NCBI RefSeq assembly: GCF_032854445.1 | Contig: NC_088307.1 | Location: 23,130,953 to 23,194,952 of the forward strand | DNA length: 64,000 nt | DNA from: Liolophura sinensis | Taxonomy: Eukaryota > Mollusca > Polyplacophora > Chitonida > Chitonidae | Reading direction: 5' to 3' | Shown: positions 5,575 to 54,500 of the stretch, piece by piece | How positions within the stretch are numbered: the first letter of the stretch is position 1 | Layout: every line of letters starts with the position of its first letter | Program-made: the position numbers and the translations under genes | Notes under the pieces: generated by a model | Databases searched by the model: none | Told to the model about the DNA's origin: nothing | Seen by the model: the letters and a program-made list of their open reading frames with translations, nothing else

Positions 5575-6212
5575 TGATCAGTACCCCCAGAATCCTCAAG
5601 ATCCAGCGAGGCCAAGGCTTTACGATTTAACATGAACCAATACCTCAGAATCCTCGAGATCCAGCCAGGCCAAGGCTTTACGATTTAACATGGACCAATA
5701 CCCTAGAATCCCCAGGATCCAGCGAGGCAAAGGCTTTAGGATTTAACATGGACCAATATCCCCAGAATCCTTGAAATGCAGCGAGGCCAAGGCTTTACGA
5801 TTTAACATGGACCAATACCCTAGAACCCCCGGGATCCAGCGAGGCAAAGGCTTTAGGATTTAACATGGACCAATACCCCCAGAATCCTCGAGATGAAGCC
5901 GGGCCGAGACTTTAGGATTTAACATGAACCAATATCCAAGAATCCACGAGATCCGGCGAAGCCTAGGCTTTAGGATTCAGTATGAACCAATACCCCAGAA
6001 TCCTCGAGACCCAGCGAGGCCACGGCTTTAGGGTTTAATGTGGACAGATACCCCAGAATCCTCGAGGTCCAGCGAGATCCTAGGCTTTAGGATTTAACAG
6101 GAACCGATACACCAGGATCCTCGAGATCCGGCGAGGCCTAGGCTTTAGGATTTAACATGAACCAATACCCTTGAATCCCCCAGATCCAGGGAGACCAAGG
6201 CTTTTAGGATTT
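5575..6212 (+). repeat. About 59-bp satellite array, 10-11 copies
   Basis: Diverged units contain ACCAATACCCCAGAATCCTC, GAGATCCAGCGAGGCCAAGG and CTTTAGGATTTAACATG. The array abuts a reverse-oriented SINE tail at 6211. Confidence 0.9.
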
Positions 6213-6312
6213 ATTTATGTATTTATTTGATTGGTGTTTAACGCCGTACTCAAAAATATTTCGTTTATACGACGGCGGTCAGCATTAGGGTGGGAGGAAA
6301 CCGGGCAGAGCC
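6211..6312 (-). mobile_element. SINE family A, 3' fragment
   Basis: Reverse copy of the 3' end: TTGGTGTTTAACGCCGTACT, then TATACGACGGCGGTCAGCAT, up to GGAAACCGGGCAGAGCC. Confidence 0.85.
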
Positions 6313-10175: not shown

Positions 10176-10495
10176 TTAACCGATGGCTGGGAACCTTGTT
10201 GGTAAAGAGCATGCTCTCCCACAAAGACTACGACAACATTTCATCGACCTTGGACACTGGGTGTCGGACTGACAGTTGTCTTCGTAACGGATGCAAAACC
10301 CAGTGATATATAGCCGCGGACAATACCCTGGTTTGCTTGTAACTGTACCCGAGGGGGACATGCACCGTCGGCTGCACCCCCACGAGCAGCATTTCAGGCT
10401 ACCGGAGCAAGATTGGTCAGAAGTGCATCCGACAACGCACGGGGTCACCACGCCGTAAGGGGCTCGTGGACAGGAACCGGGTTTGGTTGGCTGAG
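10176..10495 (-). CDS. WAP gene: terminal exon with WAP domains 4 and 5
   Basis: The acceptor TTTTTGCCTACAG gives phase 1; the exon ends at TAA. Domain 4 has [24 protein letters not shown]; domain 5 has [25 protein letters not shown]. Both keep eight cysteines and differ clearly from domains 1-3. Confidence 0.88.
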
Positions 10496-11366
10496 CTGTA
10501 GGCAAAAATGAAAAGTGTAAGTTTTGATTGGTCGTTCTGATTACGGGGTTCATTTTCCGGATTTGCTCAAAGCACATTGACTCTCTCAGCGGAAGCCCCA
10601 CAGTCGACATTCATTAAAACAAAATCATCGTATATGACAAATATATTTCAATATGTAATGTTTTTCAAAATAACTACAATGTAAGCAACAAATAAATACA
10701 TGAACAGTACAATAATGCTGGTGTCCTCTTGGGAAGAATTTAGGAAAAACATATATTAAATCAAATTAATAATGTCTTACATCCGTACGTTTATCAGACA
10801 CCTATATTGTAGTATAATGCGAAGTGCTTATGCTCGGCACATTCATATATACATACATACAAGGTATTCATTGAGGAATCGATGTAGGGTACTTAGGGAA
10901 CAAATTAACACGCCAAGTTTACAGATTTTACTTGTAACCAAATATATCGCATCATGTTCCGGTAACCTACACAGAGGGTGCAAGTTCCACACAATGCACT
11001 TCTCTAAATTATCGGTGAATAACCCTCAAACCAGAGGAGTAAAAGAACAGTACTTCATTCATAAATTTAAATCTGAACTTAACAGACAAAAAATAGGGAG
11101 ATAATCTCCCCGAGTGGATAATCCCTTGGGCAAGTTCGAACTTTCTTATATTTTATGTAATTTATAAATAGGACTGATCACCATGGCTTAAACTACCTGC
11201 CTGTATATATAGCTGTCGCAAGATATGTTGAAATTAAAAAAGCTCTGAAAAATCATCATGATACGGTGAAATTAGTAAGCTAAAGCAACAAGTTCAGTTT
11301 GTCATGTTTCTTCTATAGAATATAATTTTACCACGCACAAAGAGCGTTTTACTGTACACTTTATCC

Positions 11367-13543: not shown

Positions 13544-15283
13544 TTTCTAAATGATTACTTCCCATTCCCAATTGTATAGCCATATACATATTGTATGGCA
13601 TAATAGTAACAGCCATAGTTTATACAAGTTGAAGGCGTGTATATTTACCCATTTGACAAAGTCCCTTACTTTATTTCTCCTGTCAAATTTGAGGAGTATA
13701 TCAGATAAAGGTATTTTATATCTTCATCTAATCTCACTTACTAGATTGTATCGTTACGCAGCGCATGCCACAACCTGAAAAACAGCATTTCTGACTTCCG
13801 GGGCACGAGCTATCGGAGGAGCATTGCGCAGGGCATGTCGGGAAATGGCGTGTTTGGTAACCAGGGCACGTGCCGGGCTTTTCCACGGGGGCTAAAAACC
13901 AAAGATCACGGGCCTACATAGTTTCATGAGTGATAACACAGTGACAAAATTAAATTTGTGTGCAACAGGGTAAAGTTTGTTAATGCAATATAGCGATGAA
14001 ATTACATGGCCTTTGATCAAAGGTATAGTTTGCGTATATTGCTAGTCAACTCATTTTCGATACTTTCTTCAACAAAATAAATAAAATGGACCTAAGCTAC
14101 CCTGGACTACGTTTGTAAACACTAAACTCGTCTCCGTTAAAGTCCAAAGGACATATTCGATGCCTCGCTTCATACTTTTATTCCGTTCGAACAAAAATAT
14201 TGCAACAGTATCGCTACATAATCGTTACACCATGGATTACCTATCTTCTATAGTGAAGTATTGCTGAAACAGTAATGATGACGATCCAGCGGCAAAAAGC
14301 ACTAAGTTGAATAGCAGCAAAAACAGTTATTCTGCGTGCAAGTTGCTTCCTCACAAGCTAGTACCATAGATATTCCCGCTTATTCCGTTAACGTATGTAA
14401 AATTTACGTGTGTGTAAAGAAGTGTGTCAGCCAGTCCATTAATCAATCAGTCAATCAAATAATTAATCAATCGACCAACACTTCGAGCCTATGCATATAA
14501 GCGTATTCATACTTTCACTCAGATGTCATAGTTGCTCAGCTGAACCAGTCATCAACACTCTCAAAAGGATTACAAAGATTATTTAACCCAGCTGAGCTTA
14601 GCCTTGAATTTGCCACAAAAATTGTTTTTAAGTAAGAAACTGTTTATGGAAAACAATTTGTGGTCGTGTGTTTCGCCTGGGCTCTGCACATTTTATAAAT
14701 CTTCAAAAATCTCGCTCATTTAGCTCGGTGTTATTTTTCACCTCCTGCTCCTTGCGACCTACCCGGACGTTCGAAACTATAAATCAACATATACTTACTT
14801 GTCTGCACTGACACACAGCGCATGCCACAACCGTAGAAGCAGCACTTCTGACTTCCGGGACACGAGCTGTCGGACGAGCATCTCGCGGGGCATGACGGGA
14901 AATGGCGGGCTTGTATTCCGGTTTGGTACCCAGGACACCTGCCCGGTTTGTTTACTTGTGGTGCCCGGGCTGTTGACATATACAGAGTAATTAACAATTG
15001 TTGACTGATAATGTCATTTATCGCTAAAAGTAAACACGCGTCCAGCCCCTTGGAATGTCAGCGTAGTACAAAGTTAGACTTTGCTTTGCTTTTGCGAAGT
15101 TTGCTTTTAACTTCGTTGATGACGGTGAACGTTTTGGGCTCATTTTTTGAAATTACTTCAATTTAATTGAACAATCATCAGGAAAATATTAATAAAAATA
15201 ATCACAACTAATTTTACGTCAGGCAAGCAACCCGCACTCAAAGATATTCCTTTGGATGTAGCTTTTTGTACTTATATGTGTTG

Positions 15284-24550: not shown

Positions 24551-25294
24551 CGTCTTTCTCAAGAAGACTATATTATAAGCTAGGTCAGGCTGTGCTGGCT
24601 CTTCCATCAAACTCCCTTCTACTCTTTCCACGGCAGATCATTCGAATTTATCAACTGCGTAGTATAAGTAGTGATTTTCATTTTTCCTGGACTGTATACT
24701 TATTTTTTCAAGGCTTCGTGACACCATAATTAGACACTATTTTTACTCCTTGCACATCACGAGCTTCTTGTTTTGTGTGTATTAACTACTTTCTCTTCTG
24801 TCTCAAAAACACCAAATCGTCAGATTTACTGATTTCTTGGTGTCTAACACTGTACTCAAAAATACATCACTTATACATCACTAATATGAGGGTTGTCAAT
24901 TTCACTGGTCTCAGACAATCAGTGGTCTGCTTATCGTCTCTGGAGGTAAGCAGGTAAATTACCGTACATAATTCAATATATAAGAAAGTTTATTCATCAG
25001 TCTTGCGTAAATTTTAAAACGAGAGCTGGATAATATATCTGGGATGTACAAAGACTGGTTTTTGATTTACATTAAATTTAATAAATCCATATTAAAGTTA
25101 GTAGAACAACCATGTGAAACATACGAAGAGATATAGACAAAAGGTATCATATAAACTAGAAATATTCTTACCACCACATAGAAAACCAGGTTCTATTGGC
25201 GCATGGCTGTTCATCCTTGAGGTTGTGGCAAATAGTGTTATGATTTAATAAATCAAGATAGCCCCAAAACCTTTAGATTTACGGTCCGTTCCGT

Positions 25295-26134
25295 TTATGA
25301 CCGGAAATAAGTGCCGTCAAACACGTGACACGCAGGACCAATCAAAGAAATGTTTGTATACGTAGTTTCTCCAGTTTGTGTTGCTTTCACGTATAGTTTA
25401 CCTAACCGAGCATTAATTGCTTTCGTAAATCCTCGACAGTTTTCGTTGAATGCATTACTTCGAAAATCAGTTACTAAGGCAACAGCGGTCGCCCCAGTTC
25501 CGCACGCCCAAGTTTCACCTTTCACTCCGCTCTCGTACGACCGCATAGTTACCTCCCCTTCCCTTTCTTTAGCTATCATGATATTGTCCAGTCCTGTCGG
25601 ATACAATTTAGCATCAGCCTCGATTTTCTCTCCAAAGTTTTGAAGATCAAATTCTTTTACATCTTCGACGAATTCCACATGACAAAGTGTGCGCGTAAAG
25701 ATAGAATAACTTTGATCATTGTGTTTCTTGATTTCACTGACGTCACGAATGCTGATTTCCACCAATCCTTTCTCGACAAGATGGCGGCCCCAGTGCGCCC
25801 CATCCGGTCCGCAAAACGAAAATGTGCCCTCTGGCGGTACGACACCGATCTTCCGGGCAAATTCTACCAAACAGCGGCTTCCGTTGCCACAGAATCCGCC
25901 CAGTTCTCCAGTAGTGAGATGAGTGACATACTGGAAGGCGCAGGATTTGTGGTTGCCGTGGCGACAGTTGATCACCTCCAGTATACAGTCAGCTCCAACT
26001 CCTGTTTTCGTACAGCAGATATCCCTGTTTAACTGTTGATCGGAAAAATCGTGCAGACCCTGTCGGTTATCCACGATGACGACGTGATTTCCCAATCCAT
26101 GGTACTTAGAAAAGGAGATATTAGATGAAGCCAT
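25295..26134 (-). CDS. dapF: Diaminopimelate epimerase-fold protein (DapF-like), intact and intronless
   Basis: A single frame of 279 residues, the usual length of bacterial DapF (about 275). DapF interconverts LL- and meso-diaminopimelate without a cofactor, using two cysteines as acid and base. Both are here: GGFCGNGSRC (about residue 88) and ETWACGTGA (about 211). FSKYHGLGN at residue 8 and GPACHVFDG near the end also match. The start is fixed by in-frame TAA 33 bases upstream. By-eye comparison suggests that several positions that hold the far end of diaminopimelate in bacteria differ: Gln of GFDQ is Cys, the Asn of FNADG is Leu, the Asn of GNPH is Thr, and the Arg of YERG is Ser. The substrate may therefore be another amino acid. 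Animals lack the lysine/diaminopimelate pathway, so horizontal origin is likely. Metazoan-type repeats flank it on both sides, which argues against contamination. A possible minus-strand AATAAA is at 24989..24994. Confidence 0.92.
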   Translation of the reverse strand: MASSNISFSKYHGLGNHVVIVDNRQGLHDFSDQQLNRDICCTKTGVGADCILEVINCRHGNHKSCAFQYVTHLTTGELGGFCGNGSRCLVEFARKIGVVPPEGTFSFCGPDGAHWGRHLVEKGLVEISIRDVSEIKKHNDQSYSIFTRTLCHVEFVEDVKEFDLQNFGEKIEADAKLYPTGLDNIMIAKEREGEVTMRSYESGVKGETWACGTGATAVALVTDFRSNAFNENCRGFTKAINARLGKLYVKATQTGETTYTNISLIGPACHVFDGTYFRS

Positions 26135-26369
26135 AGTCGGTCTAACAGGGACGTCTTTCTCTTACTAGTAATAAACAGTAGAAACCGTTGATATACGGGT
26201 ATAATATTACCACATGTGAAGACAGATCATAGAATCACCTGATGTCTCAGTTATACTATCAAACTAGGTCACACATGCACGTAGATTAAATGCATGCACA
26301 GGTACTCACCGAGTTACCTACACATGGCCAACAACATACTACAGGTACAATACAATTATCTATCTAGGC

Positions 26370-26575
26370 GTCAAAATATTCGTACATCAGCCGTCAACCT
26401 AAATGGGCGTTCCGAGTCAAAAATTGAAATACCAGTTTTCAAAACAACATTCAAGACAAACCACCAAATTACTTACAACATATATAAAGTAAGAAATCAA
26501 GACGGATTCTTACAATGAGAAGCAATGAGCAGTTTTTAATGATGTTGGAAAGCCGCAAGAAATGTTCTAAGTGAA
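26370..26575 (+). repeat. Interspersed repeat family E
   Basis: ATCAGCCGTCAACCTAAATG then AATGATGTTGGAAAGCCGCA. About 240 bases from the start of the intact DapF-like gene. Confidence 0.55.
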
Positions 26576-26844
26576 TGAGTTAAATCGGTATCCAAATCGG
26601 GCACCATGTTAGTTTAAAGTTGTCGATAATCAAAGTATTCATCTCAGCTGAACTTTGATTGTAACTGTTTATACTTTCTAATGTGGCCATTTTATTCAAC
26701 ACGATAAATATACGTCCGGTATCCCCAGGTTAAGCGGAATTATACACAACTATAAAGCACAGTTCCAAAGATCCTGTACACTCCATGCTTTTCTGTTTAC
26801 ATACAACTTTACTGAGCGTAAATTTAAGAAATTTAAAGTGAAAG

Positions 26845-26960
26845 TGAAACTAAAAGTCACAGTTTTTACCGGTGAAATCCGACCCCTTGTCAGTTTACCC
26901 CAGCTAGGGTTTTTTTCCGAACCGTTCATATCTATGTTTAAAAAAGAGCAACGTGCACGC
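26845..26960 (+). repeat. Interspersed repeat family D
   Basis: TTTTTACCGGTGAAATCCGA, CTTGTCAGTTTACCCCAGCT, CCGTTCATATCTATG. Confidence 0.6.
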
Positions 26961-27164
26961 CCCCGTAGCCCCATGGGTTAAGCAGAATTAGATGAAAAGA
27001 ACAGTGGTGTACGCTGCAATTCATTTGACGTCACTGGTTTAGTATTAGCCTGCCCAATGTGTTGTTCTCACACTAAACATACAACATTATAAAAAAATTC
27101 GTTTGACATTGGTGCTTGATAGAATAAATTGCAATTAACATCACGGCATTTTTTTTACCTAAAT

Positions 27165-27355
27165 CTACTTAAGCCGTGGTGCTAAAGGGGGCGTGTAATT
27201 TGCTACTATTTGTGCATTTACATGAACAGTTAGAATAAAACCCTGGCTTAGGTAAATTAATAGGAGGCCATATTTCATCGGTAACCTTTGACCTTTTGTC
27301 AGCTTCCACACTGTCGTCCCTGCCCTAGTTTGCTCTCTACCCTGCGCGTCTTTAA
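27165..27355 (-). repeat. Interspersed repeat family D
   Basis: Reverse copy: ATTTACATGAACAGTTAGAA, CCACACTGTCGTCCCTG, ending GCGCGTCTTTAATT. Confidence 0.65.
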
Positions 27356-27380
27356 TTAGATGTGATATACAGGCCTATGG

Positions 27381-27473
27381 TTTCCACCCACCATAATGCT
27401 GGCCGCCATCGTATAAATGAAATATTCTTGAGTACGGCGTAAAACACCAATAAAATAATAAAATAAATAAATA
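27381..27473 (+). mobile_element. SINE family A, 3' fragment
   Basis: TTTCCACCCACCATAATGCT to AATATTCTTGAGTACGGCGT and an AATAAATA tail. Confidence 0.8.
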
Positions 27474-27560
27474 GGACGTTATCTTGCAAAGAGAAGCAGT
27501 CAACAGTTCCCACTGATTTTGGAAAGACGCAATTAATGTTCCAGACGAATGAGTGAAATC
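27473..27560 (+). repeat. Interspersed repeat family E, fragment
   Basis: GCAAAGAGAAGCAGTCAACA then TTTTGGAAAGACGCAA, starting at the end of the SINE tail. Confidence 0.5.
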
Positions 27561-27999
27561 AGTATTCAACCCGAGTACAATACTAGTATATAAGTTTTCG
27601 ATAATAAAATGTGTATCTCAGTTGCTTTTTGATTGCAACTGTTCATATATCCAAAATGGTAATCTAATTCAGCACGATGAATATACAGCCCATAGCCCCG
27701 GCTAACCATGGTTTTGCTAAAACTAAAAGGAAACTCATGTGTCACACCTAGATGAAGGCTTCAAGCTGCCCTCAACGGGAATTCGTCTCACATGAATACC
27801 CGCATTGACCTAAGAAAAAGTCGCGCTTGGTCGACCAAACATAACCGCGTCAACTCTGTCGACTCTCACTGTGGTATATATGCGTTTCAGTTGCCGGTAC
27901 CCTAGGACAGTTTTCTACCCCATGGGAAAGTACTGGATCCAAAGGGTGGGTGGGTTGGTGGCGTTTGCATCCAAATGAGATATGTTCAACTGTTGATTA

Positions 28000-28215
28000 A
28001 CTCCGTACCCAAGAAGCTTTCCCTGATACGGTGGCAATCAGTTTTACGGGTGGAGGAAACGTAAGAGGCTGAATTGAGGTAAACCACAGGCCTTGAGCAA
28101 GTTACTGAAAATTTTCCCCACTTGTGCAGACTTGCACGCCATATTGGTGGAAGACAAGTTGTCCTTAACGAAACCAACGGCTTAATTACAAAGCCAACAA
28201 AGCCCATGCTAACAC
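28000..28215 (+). repeat. SINE-like repeat family C
   Basis: GGTGGCAATCAGTTTTACGG, GGCCTTGAGCAAGTTACTGA and CGCCATATTGGTGGAAGACA. Confidence 0.6.
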
Positions 28216-28450
28216 TGACAGAGGATGAATCTACAATTTTCCTAAGCAATGCAATGGTAAATCATCGAAGGAATCCAGAAAAGACAGTATTCATATATAT
28301 CTTTTAATCTTTATTCCACCGCAAGCGTGAGCAGATGCATGAAAGGTTTTCTTCGTTGACCAAAGTACCACAGTTACATAAAGCTAGCAAAGTACAATTT
28401 TCATATGGAACTCAAGCTAACTCTTCGTCCATTTTTTTTTTAACAATCTC

Positions 28451-29287
28451 TTATGACCGGAAGTAGGTACCATCAAACACGTGACGAGTCGGACCAATCA
28501 GAGATATGTTTGTATAGTTCGTCTCCCCGGTGCGCTTTGCTTTCACATACAGTTTGCCTAAGTGCACGTTTATCTCTTTCGTGAATTCTGTGCCAGATTC
28601 AACAAATTTATTATTCCGTAGATCCGTTGCTAAGGCAACAGCTGTAGTTCCAGTTCCACATGACCAAGTCTCGCCGTCTATGCTTCTTTCGTAGGAACGC
28701 ATGGTTATCTCCCCTTCATTATCTTCAACAATCATTACATTTGTACCCATAGGATATCTTTTAGTGTCAAACCGAATCTTGTCCCCGAAAGTTTGCAGGT
28801 CAATATCTTTAACACTTTGGACGAACTCCACATGAACAGGAGTCCCTGTGAAAATAAAATAGCTGTTCTCGTTGTAAACCTCGATCTGGTTGACGTCACG
28901 GATGCTGATTTCCACCAAACCGTCATGCACAAGATGGCGGCCCCAGTGTTGCCCATCCGGTCCGCAAAAAGTAAAAGTGCCGTCGTTTGAAATTATGCCG
29001 AGTTTTCAGGCGAAATCTGCCAAACACCGGCTCCCATTTCCACAAAACCCTCCCACTAAACCTGATGGGAGACGGTTTAGATACTCGAATGCGCATGACT
29101 TGTGGTCGCCATGACGACAGTCTATCACCTCCAGCAAGCAGTCTGCACCGATACCAGTTTTTGTATGACAAATTTCCCGTATGAACTGAGGGTCGTTGAA
29201 GTCATACAACCCTTTTCTGTTGTCAACAAAGACAAAATGATTCCCCAAACCGTGGTATTTGGAAAATGGAAAAGACGACGACATCAT
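28451..29287 (-). pseudogene. dapF: Second DapF-like gene, complete but for one in-frame TGA
   Basis: 279 codons from ATG (29285..29287) to the TAA-type end at 28451 stay in one frame, interrupted only by TGA at 29006..29008. At that place the neighbour copy has Arg, so a CGA to TGA change is the simplest cause. It aligns over its whole length with the gene at 25.3 kb at roughly two thirds identity (by eye), with one single-residue gap. Both catalytic cysteines remain (FCGNGSRC, TWSCGTG). It keeps GTP where the neighbour has RTL, and YER where the neighbour has YES, both nearer to bacterial DapF. The many mostly conservative differences suggest that it was under selection for long after the duplication. 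The break could be a recent null allele, a sequencing error, or a readthrough codon. An upstream in-frame ATG at 29303..29305 is less likely as the start, because the neighbour's N-terminus aligns from 29287. Confidence 0.85.
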
Positions 29288-48500: not shown

Positions 48501-51500
48501 AACAAATTCAGATGTAGTCAGAGTAACAATCATCCCCCAAATCAGACAAAATGAACACAAACTCATCACTTACATGTACACATTACAAGCCAAGGGGTAA
48601 AAAAAATTTTTTCCCCACCTGTTGCAGGCATTGTTTATCTTAGTAACTGTTTTCGCCACCTGTACATACTCGTTATTAACACATCTGTCTCAGGGTCATC
48701 ATGTTCATTTCATACAACTACAAAACTACAGACATTAATCAATGCTTAGTCCTGAGACTAGTTTTAATATGCGGAATTCTGTCTCAAAATATTTCAGAAA
48801 TTTTCAAGAATAGTGCGCTAGAACACACCTGGAAACTTTTGGTTTCACGTCAGTTGGAAAAATGACATGTTTTAGCCATTAAAATTAGAAATCTAAAGTA
48901 TGGTATTTCAGATACAGTTTAGCATTTTTCAAGATACAGTTTGCTTGATTCGCTGGCAGATTTGGAGTTCGCTCAGGGGGCTGCCGATGCGAAGCGAAAC
49001 AGTAGTGTCGCGACCTACAATTGACCAATGATTTAAATACACACCAAGGCAGCTGATTTTTCCATTTGACTCAATAGTAAATCACGTTGAAAAGTTTGCA
49101 AATGCTGTCTCTATACAATTTTTAACTAGATCGTGTGAGATTCCTTAAGTTGAAGATGTCCATTTGCTTAATAAATCTTTCCAAGAAAATTGCTCCACAA
49201 TGTACATCTTTTTTGTTTTCAGCAAATTGCTAGTGATTTTTAAGTTCTACTGATTGACTGATTCAGCTTACATGACCATTTGTTAAGAGTTTTACGTGAA
49301 ATTTGATTAATTTCTCATCACAAAAAAAAACAAAAACAAAAGTGTCGTTTTATGGCCTTTATGTGTTTCTGAAAGTTCATTTTTACATACAAAACTTTAG
49401 AGGAAAGTCCAAACAGAAGTCTAAACTAACAACTTGGGAAATAAGGGGATAGCCCAGCTATCTGCATGAATAGGCACTCCACATAATGGACAAACCTGGT
49501 CCTGTACCGGAGGAGGGAAACACCTCAGTGCAAATTGACACAGTGGTTTTCAATCAGGTCCAAAACAGACCTCCTGTCTAAGAACCTTAAGGTTTAGACA
49601 CAATTGAGCGCTTGTCAGGAACATGCTGTGTGGACTGAGTGTAAACACATAGGCTGTGTGTAGACGCAGATACTTCAGCACTTTACTCAGAAAACAAGCT
49701 CGCAAATTTTCTCTCAGCAGGATGCAATAAGGTCGATGTTTTTTGCAAACTATGTAATAAGGTCACCATGTACTGCTGTCAAAAAGGTTTTCGATTAAAC
49801 CCCACATCGATGCAACAAGCCCTATATGTATTCCAGGGTAGTACCCAGAATTCTTAAATCCCTTTTAATACACTCATGTAAAATTTCAAAACTGGACTTC
49901 TGTTCAAAAGAAGAATGAAACTACAGGTACATGTATGAACATGTAAGTGCTTGTATTTTGTCATATTAGTATAACTTGTAAGAGATAACTAGGATTTGAG
50001 ATTATAGGAGATGCCAGAATGTTAGACAGTTTCATTAACCAGCTCTGAAATTTAATAAATATCACATGCACTGTCTAAATCTGCAATAAAAAAAAATAGA
50101 AGATATTAAAGGTAAAAACTGGATAAGACAAAACTCATGATATGTTATTAAATTTATAAATAACTACTTGTAGATGACAAAAAAAAGGGAAATAACTAAT
50201 AGAAATGTGGCAATAAAAGCCTAAAAGTGAAGCTCCTTGCAAGCTGTTTGCGTATATTATGTGTGTTCATATTTTGTCTGGTTATTGAGTATTTACTGCC
50301 AATACTGTTAAACAGTTTAAAGGGGATTACTTTAACACCAACCCAGCATTATTTCAAGACAAGTTTGATACCTGTACATGTGTATGTAACTACCCTAAAT
50401 GAACATAAATTTCATCCAGGATTAACTTGCCCGTTTTTCCCGATTTTGAGAGCTCTATTGATTTTAGAACGGTGTTTTGAAGTTTGTTTGGAACATGGGA
50501 TACTATTCTAATGGAAAGCTGTAAGTTTCAGCATCAAAAATAATATTTTGTGACATTTGTATGCCTCTAAAAATGCACTTTTGTGGGCGAAATTTGAGGT
50601 CATTAAGGGTACTACTATCAACCACACTCTGCCAACAAATTGTAGCTAATAGTTTTAAAAGTTGGAATATTCAGTTAGATTTGACATGAATGCTTTGCCT
50701 GGGCTGAAAGAAACAAGCAGCCCATGCATTTCAGATTTAACTGTGGTACTGGCATGCTATTAAGTACAGTTACTATATGCATTTCCAAAAGCAAATAATT
50801 TAAATTTTTTTCTCCGAATCAGACAGAATCAATGATAAACAACAACATCCTCAATCAAACCTTACACTCCCAATCCTATATTTGAACATGAGCAGATTCA
50901 ACATATTGAACTCTTACAATAGGAGTTTACAATTAACTTCTGTTATTCAATTTCCCTGAATGCCTGTCATGGTTATAGTAGGCATGATGGATCCTCACTG
51001 AGAGAACAAGAGACTATCTCCTTGGAGAATGAGGAAGCCATTCTGAGGAAATGAAAGCTACAATTTTAGACTTGATAATCACCTTATCATGCTACACAGT
51101 TAATAATCCTTCAATCAAGATATACTGTTGATAATCACCCAATACAGCTATCCTGTTGATAATCCCCCAATATAGCTATCCTGTTGATAATCACCCAATA
51201 CAGCTGAACTGCTGATAATCACACAATCCCGCTGTATTGTTGATAATCACCCAATACAGCTATACTGTTGATAACCTCCCAATACAGCTATACTGTTGAT
51301 AATCACCCAATAAAGCTATACTGTTGATAATCACCCAATTCAGCTATCCTGTTGATGATCACCCAATCCTGCTATATTGTTGATAATCACCCAATCCTGC
51401 TATATTGTTGATGATCACCCAATCCTGGTGTATTGTTTTTTTTGATCACCCAATCCAACTAAACTGTTGATGACCACCTAATCATACTATCCTGCTCATG

Positions 51501-54500
51501 ATCATCCACTGACCATTGATCATACCACTGATAATCACCCAATCCAGCTGTAACATTGATAATCACCCAATCCAGCTATACCATTGATAATCACCCAATC
51601 CAGCTGTACCATTGATAATCACCCAATCCAGCTGTACCACTAATAATCACCCAATCCAGCTGTACCACTGATAATCACCCAATCCAGCTGTACCACTAAT
51701 AATCACCCAATCCAGCTGTACCACTGATAATCACCCAATCCAGCTGTAACATTGATAATCACCCAATCCAGCTATACCATTGATAATCACCCAATCCAGC
51801 TATACCACTGATAATCACCCAATCCAGCTGTACCACTAATAATCACCCAATCCAGCTTACCATTCATAATCACCCAATCCAGCTGTACCACTGATAATCA
51901 CCCAATCCAGCTGTAACATTGATAATCACCCAATCCAGCTATACCATTGATAATCACCCAATCCAGCTGCACCATTGATAATCACCCAATCCAGCTGTAC
52001 CACTGATAATCACCCAATCCAGCTGTACCACTGATAATCACCCAATCCAGCTGTACCACTGATAATCACCCAATCCAGCTGTACCATTGATAATCACCCA
52101 ATCCAGCTGTACCACTGATAATCACCCAATCCAGCTGTACCACTGATAATCACCCAATCCAGCTGTACCACTGATAATCACCCAATCCAGCTGTACCATT
52201 GATAATCACCCAATCCAGCTTAAATATGAGTATTAAGATATTCCGTCTATAAAGACAGTCGGGGCCTCCGTGGCTCAGTCGGTTAGCGCGCTAGCGCAGC
52301 GTAGTGACCCAGGAGCCTCTCACCAATGCGGTCGCTGTGAGTTCAAGACCAGCTCATGCTGGCTTCCTCTCCGGCCGTACGTGGGAAGGTCTGCCAGCAA
52401 CCTGCGGATGGTCGTGGGTTTCCGCCGGGCTCTGCCCGGATTCCACCCACCATAATGCTGGCCGCCGTCGTATAAGTGAAATATTCTTGAGTACGGCGTA
52501 AAACACCAATCAAAAAAAAAAAAACAAAATAAAGACAGTCTGTTAATCTACGAGTCAAAACTACGAGACTATCGTATACCAGCTATCAACGAATATGGAT
52601 GTTCCAGGTCAATAATCGCATGGCCAATTCCCAAAAAATGACATTATAACACACATCACCAGAGAACGATGAAAACAATATATGAAGTACGAAAATAGGA
52701 CGGAATCATACAAAGAGAAGCAGTCAACAGTTTTCAATGATGTTGGAAAGATGCAAGGTATGTGCTAGGCTTTCCAGACACAGAGTCTATGAAGACACTG
52801 ATAATACCGTGCATATACATCAGCCAGTTGACCAATCACAAAATCCTGAATTTTCATGTGAATCATGTGTAACACAAAGTTACTCATATTTACTTACATA
52901 CCTGTAGTTTTTTTAAGGGCAGGAATGTTCAAATCGTAATCGGCACCTTTGTAACACGTTAGCCAGACGGCCAGGTAAATTTGATTAAGGAAATAAACAC
53001 TGAAGCATGCCAGTGGCTGTAATTGAAGGTTTTTGCAATTCAAAGTTATGCTTCATAATGACCATGAATAATAGAATTGGAAACTTTAAGCATTCAATCA
53101 ATACACTTCTTCTTAAGTATACACAGATAAATAAAAACAAAGTTTGCTGCATATTTGTAAGACAGCGGAAAACTTACCTCACGTAAATGTACAGAAATAT
53201 GTGTGAGGTGAAAACTGTTCAAGGCTGATTGGGCCATTCAATGTCAGGTCACAATATAGGGTTTATATCGATCTATCAAATGTTAATGTGCATTCCTTTG
53301 ACAAGAAGTTTACTGAAAAAGTTACCGCTCATGCAGTTACAATTCATCTACATGACTGTATATTAATTACGTGATGGCAGATATCCGCGCCTTCCCAGAC
53401 ACCTTACAAATATCCTCAAGGCAAAGCTGTAACAAATCCTTTACGAGCTAGAACTGAGCATGTGACCTTATTGGTCAAAGAGCCAGTGGTAGGTTAGTAA
53501 GGGACCATCCCCATAAATCAGTTGCATTTGTTTGGTTTTTTCTTTCTCCTAAATACCCACCCCGATCTACACCCTTCATTTGCCCATTCTACTTAAACGA
53601 TTTACATGAATCAAAAAAATCCTGGTAAATTTGAGTGCACAGCCACTTAACTGAGTGATGACTGCATTCCAAAATATCAGTTTAATTTAAGTAGACGCTA
53701 CTGCATACATACATATGTAGCGCAACTATGACAACATGTTTTTGTAAAATCAATCAGTTTAATACTGCGATCTAAAATGTTATTCTGGAAATCCACGAAG
53801 CTCTCATTTTCTGATATGAAGGAAAAACTTCAGTACTACAGCAGGTGAGGAAAAAAAAAACTCAAAAACTTCTTAATGTTGTGAGATTTCACATTTAAAA
53901 CAGTATGGTACATAAATGCTCTGATGTGTGAGACTACCCTTGAAAGGTTTATAGGTACATTTGTAACAAAAGCCGTTTCCGATTTTTTGTTCATGTCCGA
54001 CTTTCAATAAGAAGTGAGGTTTTTGGGAGACCCGGGTGAAGACAAACATGGTCTCTATCTCTGGGTCTATCAGACAGATCAGAAATGTGAAGGCAGTATA
54101 GTTTGGTCCTTATTAAGGGATTATAAGATTAGAGAGGACAGACAGATCCATCATAACCAATCAAGGCTGCCAGGAAATTTGTGAGTTTAGCCTTTGTATT
54201 TTCTGATCTCACCTTTCATATTTGCTACATGTTGTCGTTGTTATAAATTATGTTCATCACTGAAATTCACATATAAAGTGTAGAGAAAGCATGTAAGTGT
54301 TGGGTAGGGTAATGACATTTCCCTTGTCAAAGATGTATATAAAGATGGATACAGTACCCCATTACAACTCTCGTTTTTCAGGAGGGATGAATGTAATTCT
54401 GTGTATTTTTAAAGTGTAAAGTCTTTTTTGCTGCCAGCCTGCCATTTTTGGTGTACAGGTGCATGCTTGGTGTCAAAATGATGGAAATTGTCTCGGCTTT

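What the first reader, a model, noticed from the sequence alone, without database searches (positions are those of the whole stretch)
25295..29287. Tandem DapF-fold epimerase/racemase genes in an animal genome
Seen: two intronless, full-length DapF-type sequences on the same strand, both with the two catalytic-cysteine motifs (CGNGSRC and CGTG). Known: DapF belongs to lysine/peptidoglycan pathways of bacteria and plants; animals lack them. Inference: a horizontally acquired gene, duplicated in place and kept. Repeats of the host type lie between and on both sides of the copies, so it is not simple bacterial contamination.
Basis: partly seen in the sequence, partly recalled or inferred. Interest (0 to 1): 0.88.

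Follow-up and report, generated by a model that had tools for sequence, protein, structure and literature searches.

The report
Remodelled bacterial-type epimerase genes in chiton
A chiton (a marine mollusc) carries, built into its chromosomes, a small family of bacterial-type epimerase genes; the window holds one working-looking member whose substrate-gripping residues have changed and one old neighbour copy with a stop codon in it.

Summary
Half right. 25295..26134 (-) is an intact, intronless 279-codon DapF-fold gene. The second copy, 28451..29287 (-), has both cysteine motifs but one in-frame TGA (29006-29008). The host is the chiton Liolophura sinensis; a repeat between the copies has a 27-base core with 14,062 exact copies in the genome. 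The genome has 11 DapF loci: this pair, eight on C12 and a canonical copy at C13:720 kb. Relatives occur in four gastropod genera; 23 molluscan rows form one clade (95/88 after dropping seven rows; 55/61 before) beside Bacteroidota-type DapF. So this is an old molluscan family, most simply one ancient transfer. The window pair is near synonymous saturation (dN/dS about 0.09). In the intact copy catalytic residues are kept (0 of 8 changed), but residues gripping DAP's far carboxylate are changed (3 of 4); the canonical copy keeps all 12. The genome also has a multi-exon DAP decarboxylase (lysA); no dapB or murE was found. Best reading: the canonical copy may help salvage microbial DAP towards lysine; the window gene is a re-specialised cofactor-free amino-acid racemase. 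Substrate and expression are untested.

The parts
25295..26134 (-). intact intronless DapF-fold gene, 279 codons; catalytic cysteines C82 (CGNGSRC) and C211 (CGTG)
   Evidence: AlphaFold2 model pLDDT 94.4, pTM 0.92; recognition sub-site residues changed
28451..29287 (-). diverged tandem paralogue of near-equal length, interrupted by one in-frame TGA; both cysteine motifs still encoded
   Evidence: 89% protein identity to the intact unnamed relative P0002 over 267 columns
29006..29008 (-). in-frame TGA, codon 94 of the paralogue
27418..27444 (-). 27-base core of a dispersed host repeat between the two copies (14,062 exact copies in the genome)
28303..28315 (-). AATAAA and ATTAAA hexamers that begin 135 and 142 bases behind the stop of copy 2 (consensus only)
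24989..24994 (-). AATAAA hexamer 300 bases behind the stop of the intact copy (consensus only; ATTAAA also at 25249 and 25082)

Best explanation
A molluscan lineage took up a Bacteroidota-type dapF gene long ago and kept it. In this chiton it has multiplied to 11 loci. One copy (C13:720 kb) keeps every residue scored that bacterial DapF uses to bind both ends of diaminopimelate. The window lineage and the C12 array keep the two-cysteine catalytic sub-site but have lost residues that hold the far carboxylate of DAP. The intact window gene therefore most likely encodes a cofactor-independent, two-base (Cys/Cys) amino-acid racemase or epimerase: one thiolate removes the alpha-hydrogen, the other thiol returns it on the opposite face, acting on an amino acid other than DAP. 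Copy 2 is an old sister gene with a stop that looks recent (one stop, no frameshift in 278 codons), a pseudogene or a null allele. Shown here: gene structure, fold by prediction, family, host, copy number, age of the duplication, constraint, residue pattern. Inferred: transfer direction, enzyme activity, change of substrate, expression.
For: Intact ORF and fold. Host integration. Family of 11 loci. Tree: 23 molluscan rows one clade 95/88, on the Bacteroidota-type side of a 100/100 branch. Constraint: pN 0.184 against pS 0.720 between the two window copies, dN/dS about 0.09. Catalytic residues 0 of 8 changed; recognition residues 3 of 4 changed in the intact copy, 2 of 4 in copy 2, and 3, 3, 4 and 4 of 4 in the four C12 copies scored (of eight); the canonical copy 0 of 12; of 80 bacterial rows N64 and N190 are in 80, R209 and S157 in 79. 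These distal residues are stated to bind the distal carboxyl (PMC8225329 passages; PMC5296763 passages), and alanine mutants of all four equivalents in C. glutamicum DapF (N74, N159, N194, R213) lost nearly all activity (PMC5296763 passage). The Dab racemase PddB has replaced them in a model. The window protein is the only one of 11 family proteins scored that misses the DapF equivalog cut-off (105 against 114.65 bits). Its best fold match is O-ureidoserine racemase, whereas the canonical copy's is a DapF.
Against: For the window copy alone, recognition residues are not significantly more changed than other conserved columns (3/4 against 19/62, p 0.10; copy 2 p 0.35; C12 20914 p 0.059, 20911 p 0.041, 20945 p 0.004). 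N190 is still Asn in the window copy and R209 is kept in copy 2 and P0002. Alanine mutants of the catalytic-end residues were dead too, so the paper does not single out the distal ones. P0002, P0003 and P0004, which share the changed pocket, pass the DapF cut-off (130-133 bits). The Foldseek order may reflect open or closed form, and DapF and O-ureidoserine racemase are close in both lists. AU tests do not reject separate bacterial origins of the window lineage (p 0.091 and 0.251). No expression, activity or read data were seen. 9 of the 23 'molluscan' tree rows are unnamed proteins assigned by position only.
Confidence: 0.6

Rival explanations
1. Vertical inheritance: an old dapF gene of early opisthokonts, kept in molluscs and lost in most other animals, rather than a transfer into molluscs.
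For: DapF and other DAP-pathway genes are reported in choanoflagellates, with amino-acid-metabolism candidates having orthologues in sponges and cnidarians (PMC7971027 passages). A diaminopimelate decarboxylase is listed as an alien gene of a coral (PMC4878875 passage). L. sinensis also has a multi-exon lysA whose nearest solved relatives are Arabidopsis enzymes, so old eukaryotic DAP genes may persist.
Against: All nine intact copies are single open frames without introns; the named non-mollusc relatives found are bacteria, nearly all Bacteroidota. But the lists were capped and no choanoflagellate, sponge or cnidarian DapF was in the trees.
Confidence: 0.25
2. The window enzyme still is a DAP epimerase, working with the lysA product (and the canonical copy) to turn microbial DAP from food into lysine.
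For: Both catalytic cysteines and E208 kept; lysA gene present above its curated cut-off when exons are joined (393.3 against 297.9 bits), while dapB and murE gave 0 matches (controls ring in 11 and 12 of 14).
Against: N64 to Leu, N157-equivalent Ser to Thr and R209 to Ser in the window copy; alanine mutants of these positions are reported nearly inactive in C. glutamicum DapF; it misses the DapF equivalog cut-off. The canonical C13:720 kb copy fits this role far better.
Confidence: 0.15
3. Decaying or non-enzymatic gene family: copies drift after loss of use.
For: Copy 2 has a stop; the C12:21002 copy lost the first cysteine motif by an in-frame deletion; pairs of the recent C12 copies have dN/dS of 0.2-1.1 on few changes.
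Against: 9 of 11 loci are intact, dN/dS about 0.09 for the old window pair, catalytic sub-site unchanged in all six intact copies scored, of nine.
Confidence: 0.1
4. Bacterial contamination or misassembly.
For: Bacterial-like protein in an animal assembly.
Against: Host repeats between and around the copies, 30-Mb contig, WAP-domain exons in the same window, homologues in Haliotis, Gigantopelta, Batillaria and Physella, highest non-mollusc identity listed only 38%. Published HiFi reads average 8,347 bases at 14x, long enough to span the 4-kb pair, but no reads were seen here.
Confidence: 0.01

Closest known systems
Bacterial/plant diaminopimelate epimerase DapF (TIGR00652, PF01678), Bacteroidota-type branch
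   Same: fold, length, two catalytic Cys, residues of the catalytic end
   Different: distal carboxylate pocket remodelled in the window and C12 copies; window copy under the equivalog cut-off; animal chromosome
Whitefly and mealybug dapF + lysA, horizontally acquired (PMC4607527, passages seen)
   Same: dapF in an animal genome, with lysA in the same genome
   Different: the whitefly dapF is placed in Enterobacteriales and tied to bacteriocyte symbionts; here the relatives are Bacteroidota-type, the family is shared by a chiton and gastropods, multiplied and diverged
Non-DAP DapF-fold racemases: PddB (2,4-diaminobutyrate; PMC8225329 passages), HisR/CntK (histidine; PMC11602996 passages), O-ureidoserine racemase 7vdy
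   Same: Cys/Cys PLP-independent mechanism with a changed side-chain pocket; 7vdy is the window model's best fold match
   Different: bacterial; low sequence identity (22% to 7vdy); substrate of the chiton enzyme unknown

Membership tests
DapF (diaminopimelate epimerase) | PF01678 domain over its gathering score | tested here: met
   64.9 against 34.7 bits
DapF (diaminopimelate epimerase) | two catalytic Cys in CGNG and CGTG/CGSG | tested here: met
   C82 and C211
DapF (diaminopimelate epimerase) | over the TIGR00652 equivalog cut-off 114.65 | tested here: not met
   window copy 105 bits; the ten other family proteins scored reach 130.1-179.7
DapF (diaminopimelate epimerase) | distal-carboxylate residues N64, N157 (S in Bacteroidota), N190, R209 | tested here: not met
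   window copy L, T, N, S; canonical C13:720 kb copy N, S, N, R
DapF (diaminopimelate epimerase) | epimerises LL-DAP to meso-DAP | not testable with these tools
   needs an assay
DAP lysine pathway | dapB present | tested here: not met
   PF05173: 0 matches; controls ring in 11 of 14. Searched exon by exon, so a gene of very short exons could be missed
DAP lysine pathway | lysA present | tested here: met
   no single exon over the cut-off; exon composite 393.3 against 297.9
Peptidoglycan synthesis | murE present | tested here: not met
   TIGR01085: 0 matches; controls ring in 12 of 14
Horizontally acquired animal gene | embedded in host chromosome | tested here: met
Horizontally acquired animal gene | nested within one bacterial group in a tree with wide eukaryote sampling | tested here: inconclusive
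   beside, not inside, the sampled Bacteroidota-type rows, 95/88; no non-mollusc eukaryote known to be in the tree

The most novel reading that the evidence does not exclude
Chitons run the last two steps of bacterial lysine synthesis (canonical DapF plus a multi-exon LysA) to salvage DAP from grazed microbes, and from that epimerase have bred a set of new animal racemases, among them the window gene, that make D-amino acids by a cofactor-free mechanism.
Probability: 0.3. Interest if true: 0.82.

Novelty: new variant of a known kind. Interest (0 to 1): 0.62.

Why it matters
Among the papers I looked into, DapF in animals appears only in sap-feeding insects with symbionts (PMC4607527 passages). 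Here it is an old family shared by a chiton and gastropods that has multiplied in the chiton and lost part of its DAP grip while keeping its catalytic core, with a lysA gene in the same genome. That makes two questions directly testable: can an animal turn bacterial cell-wall DAP into lysine, and can a transferred epimerase evolve into a new animal amino-acid racemase.

Tried and rejected
Considered and rejected: contamination; recent tandem duplication (near-saturated synonymous sites; flanks do not align except in repeats); two intact genes (in-frame TGA); NCBI's own model P0001 as the true protein (its last 24 residues differ from the C-terminus shared by copy 2 and P0002). One chiton duplication against two lineages older than the chiton-gastropod split: unresolved (chiton monophyly p-AU 0.395). 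The first tree, with the unknown row enaP0234, gave only 55/61 for the molluscan-like group; dropping enaP0234, L049, L055, L087, L095, P0284 and P0301 gave 95/88, so the rise depends on that choice. Of 80 bacterial loci fetched (505 confirmed, best 80 kept), 33 went into the first tree and 29 into the second; all 80 went into the residue count. At least four of the 80 carry labels other than Bacteroidota (L044, L056, L057, L091; L017 has no phylum), perhaps misbinned. Of 11 chiton loci, 7 went into the trees. Seven paper searches around DapF in molluscs or chitons listed 0, 3, 6, 0, 1, 0 and 2 papers, none of them on molluscan DapF by title and abstract; I opened four of the twelve for passages. 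The library is open-access PMC only. The sixth lysA match, on C7 (29.6 bits), was fetched but not looked into.
Full report
What is there. The minus strand of the window holds an intact 279-codon ORF at 25295..26134 that matches Pfam DAP_epimerase at 9.4e-18. About 2.3 kb upstream on the same strand lies a homologue of near-equal length, 28451..29287, with one in-frame TGA at codon 94. Both carry CGNGSRC and CGTG.

Host and setting. The window lies at C13:23130953-23194952 of a genome of 609,464,459 bases in 632 contigs. This fits the assembly published as the chiton Liolophura japonica: 609,495,693 bases, 632 scaffolds, PacBio HiFi plus Omni-C (PMC11068029; passages, results section). C12 (31,077,156) and C7 (60,359,117) equal two of its scaffolds exactly; C13 and C6 are 3,293 and 3,673 bases shorter than scaffold_9 and scaffold_2, which I cannot explain. 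The species was later corrected to L. sinensis (PMC12441733, read whole), the name in the NCBI protein records. NCBI already lists the window protein as 'diaminopimelate epimerase-like', with a different last 24 residues that I take for a wrong splice (P0001). Dispersed host repeats lie around and between the copies: a 27-base core with 12 matches (up to 3 mismatches) in the window and 14,062 exact copies in the genome, 0 for the reversed control; 27200-27700 matches repeats on the other chromosomes. WAP-domain exons lie at 10179-10610 and 14734-14997.

The family in the genome. Two searches with different queries gave the same 11 loci: the window pair, a canonical copy at C13:720 kb, and eight on C12 between 20.91 and 21.24 Mb. 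Only the best candidates are scored, so 11 is a lower bound. Nine of 11 are intact ORFs; copy 2 has the stop; the C12:21002 copy has an in-frame deletion that removes the first cysteine motif. Six of the eight C12 copies lie 54-61 kb apart, and the 4.5-5 kb stretches fetched around them are 95-98.5% identical (one 469-base piece 93%), so that part of the array is recent. The window pair is old: pS 0.720, pN 0.184, dN/dS about 0.09 (Nei-Gojobori, near saturation, so rough).

Relatives. Relatives with source names come from Haliotis asinina, rubra and rufescens, Gigantopelta aegis, Batillaria attramentaria and Physella acuta. An unnamed protein, P0002, is 65% identical to the intact copy and 89% to copy 2 and is intact, so an unbroken relative of copy 2 exists. 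The highest identity outside the molluscan rows is 38% (P0007, unnamed); the best named bacterium is a Flavobacteriales MAG at 36% (P0011).

Tree. With 71 rows the molluscan-like rows lie together with weak support, 55/61. With 64 rows, after dropping seven (named in Tried and rejected), the 23 molluscan rows, 9 of them unnamed, form one side of a branch with 95/88, and molluscs plus Bacteroidota-type bacteria are split from the five Pseudomonadota, Bacillota and Fusobacteriota rows with 100/100. The window and C12 lineages are sisters (100/99); the canonical chiton copy groups with the gastropod-like rows (95/82). Chiton monophyly is not rejected (p-AU 0.395), nor is a separate bacterial origin of the window lineage (p-AU 0.091 and 0.251). 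One ancient transfer from a Bacteroidota-like donor is the simplest reading, not a proven one.

Active site. I placed E. coli DapF numbering on an alignment; that it equals the H. influenzae numbering of the papers is recalled, but the named residues fall as expected (N64, C73, N157, N190, E208, R209, C217). Residues for the catalytic end (N11, C73, G74, N75, E208, C217, G218, T219) are unchanged in all seven window/C12-lineage rows examined. Residues for the distal carboxyl (N64, N157 with Ser in Bacteroidota, N190, R209) match the bacterial pattern in 12 of 14 other molluscan rows scored, the canonical chiton copy among them; the exceptions are Gigantopelta (one change) and the second Haliotis rubra protein P0131 (two, plus E208). 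In 80 bacterial rows they are kept in 79-80. They are L/T/N/S in the intact window copy, L/T/N/R in copy 2 and P0002, and R/S/V/C, C/G/N/C, C/T/V/C and C/T/V/C in four C12 copies. Recognition against catalytic change: p 0.018 for the window copy, 0.09 for copy 2, 0.002 for C12:20945; against other conserved columns p 0.10, 0.35 and 0.004. So the pattern is clear for the C12 group and suggestive for the window copy alone. The roles of the residues are from passages of PMC8225329 and PMC5296763.

Structure. AlphaFold2 gave pLDDT 94.4 and pTM 0.92 for the window protein and 95.6 and 0.92 for the canonical copy. Foldseek's best PDB match is O-ureidoserine racemase for the former and P. aeruginosa DapF for the latter. 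The differences in score are small.

Pathway. dapB (PF05173) and murE (TIGR01085) gave 0 matches in the genome, while the controls ring in 11 and 12 of 14 genomes. A lysA search gave six matches, none over the cut-off alone: five exon-like ones in order on C6 at 34.559-34.565 Mb and one on C7. Seven exon pieces joined by eye score 393.3 bits against the lysA cut-off of 297.9; the best solved relative is Arabidopsis DAP decarboxylase 1 with 389 bits, human ornithine decarboxylase 44 bits. The chiton thus has genes for both end enzymes of the DAP lysine route and no dapB found to make DAP. Salvage of microbial DAP is an inference. dapA, dapD, dapE and dapL were not searched.

Mechanism. Shown: an intact, constrained gene of DapF fold with both cysteines, in a family whose members differ in the recognition sub-site. 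Inferred: cofactor-independent racemisation of an amino acid other than DAP by the window enzyme; DAP epimerisation by the canonical copy. Known parallels: PddB, HisR/CntK and O-ureidoserine racemase, which keep the mechanism and act on other substrates.

Novelty. DapF transfer into animals is known from whiteflies and mealybugs (PMC4607527 passages), and choanoflagellate dapF has been flagged as transferred (PMC7971027 passages). A coral DAP decarboxylase is listed as alien (PMC4878875 passage). A 2011 survey holds that lysine synthesis and other essential pathways were lost in animals (PMC3287585 passages). Seven searches of the open-access library for molluscan or chiton DapF listed no paper on it. 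The kind is known; the old, multiplied and re-specialised molluscan family with lysA in the same genome is a new variant.

Noticed in passing
G000 C6:34558012-34564825 (locus L117): Multi-exon DAP decarboxylase (lysA) gene on an 82-Mb contig of the chiton, above the curated lysA cut-off when exons are joined by eye; nearest solved relative is the Arabidopsis chloroplast enzyme.
   Followed up: partly
G000 C12:20911359-21238239 (loci L009-L015): Array of eight DapF copies; six lie 54-61 kb apart with fetched stretches about 95-98.5% identical, and one of these has lost the first cysteine motif by an in-frame deletion.
   Followed up: partly
P0009 and P0131 (Haliotis rubra, both listed with a longest contig of 2,101,646 bases): Abalone also has two DapF-like proteins, apparently on one scaffold; the second has changed N64, S157, E208 and the CGTG motif (CGTV).
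   Followed up: partly
window 10179-10610 and 14734-14997 (-): Two ORF pieces with WAP four-disulfide-core domains, probably exons of an animal WAP gene.
   Followed up: partly
P0234 (unnamed, 291 aa, 13.9-kb contig): DapF protein that falls beside the molluscan rows but has no source name; may be another eukaryote. With it (and six other rows) in the tree the molluscan group is weak.
   Followed up: partly
window 51128-52220 and 5585-6213: Long tandem arrays, period 28 (38.8 copies) and 58 (10.8 copies).
   Followed up: no
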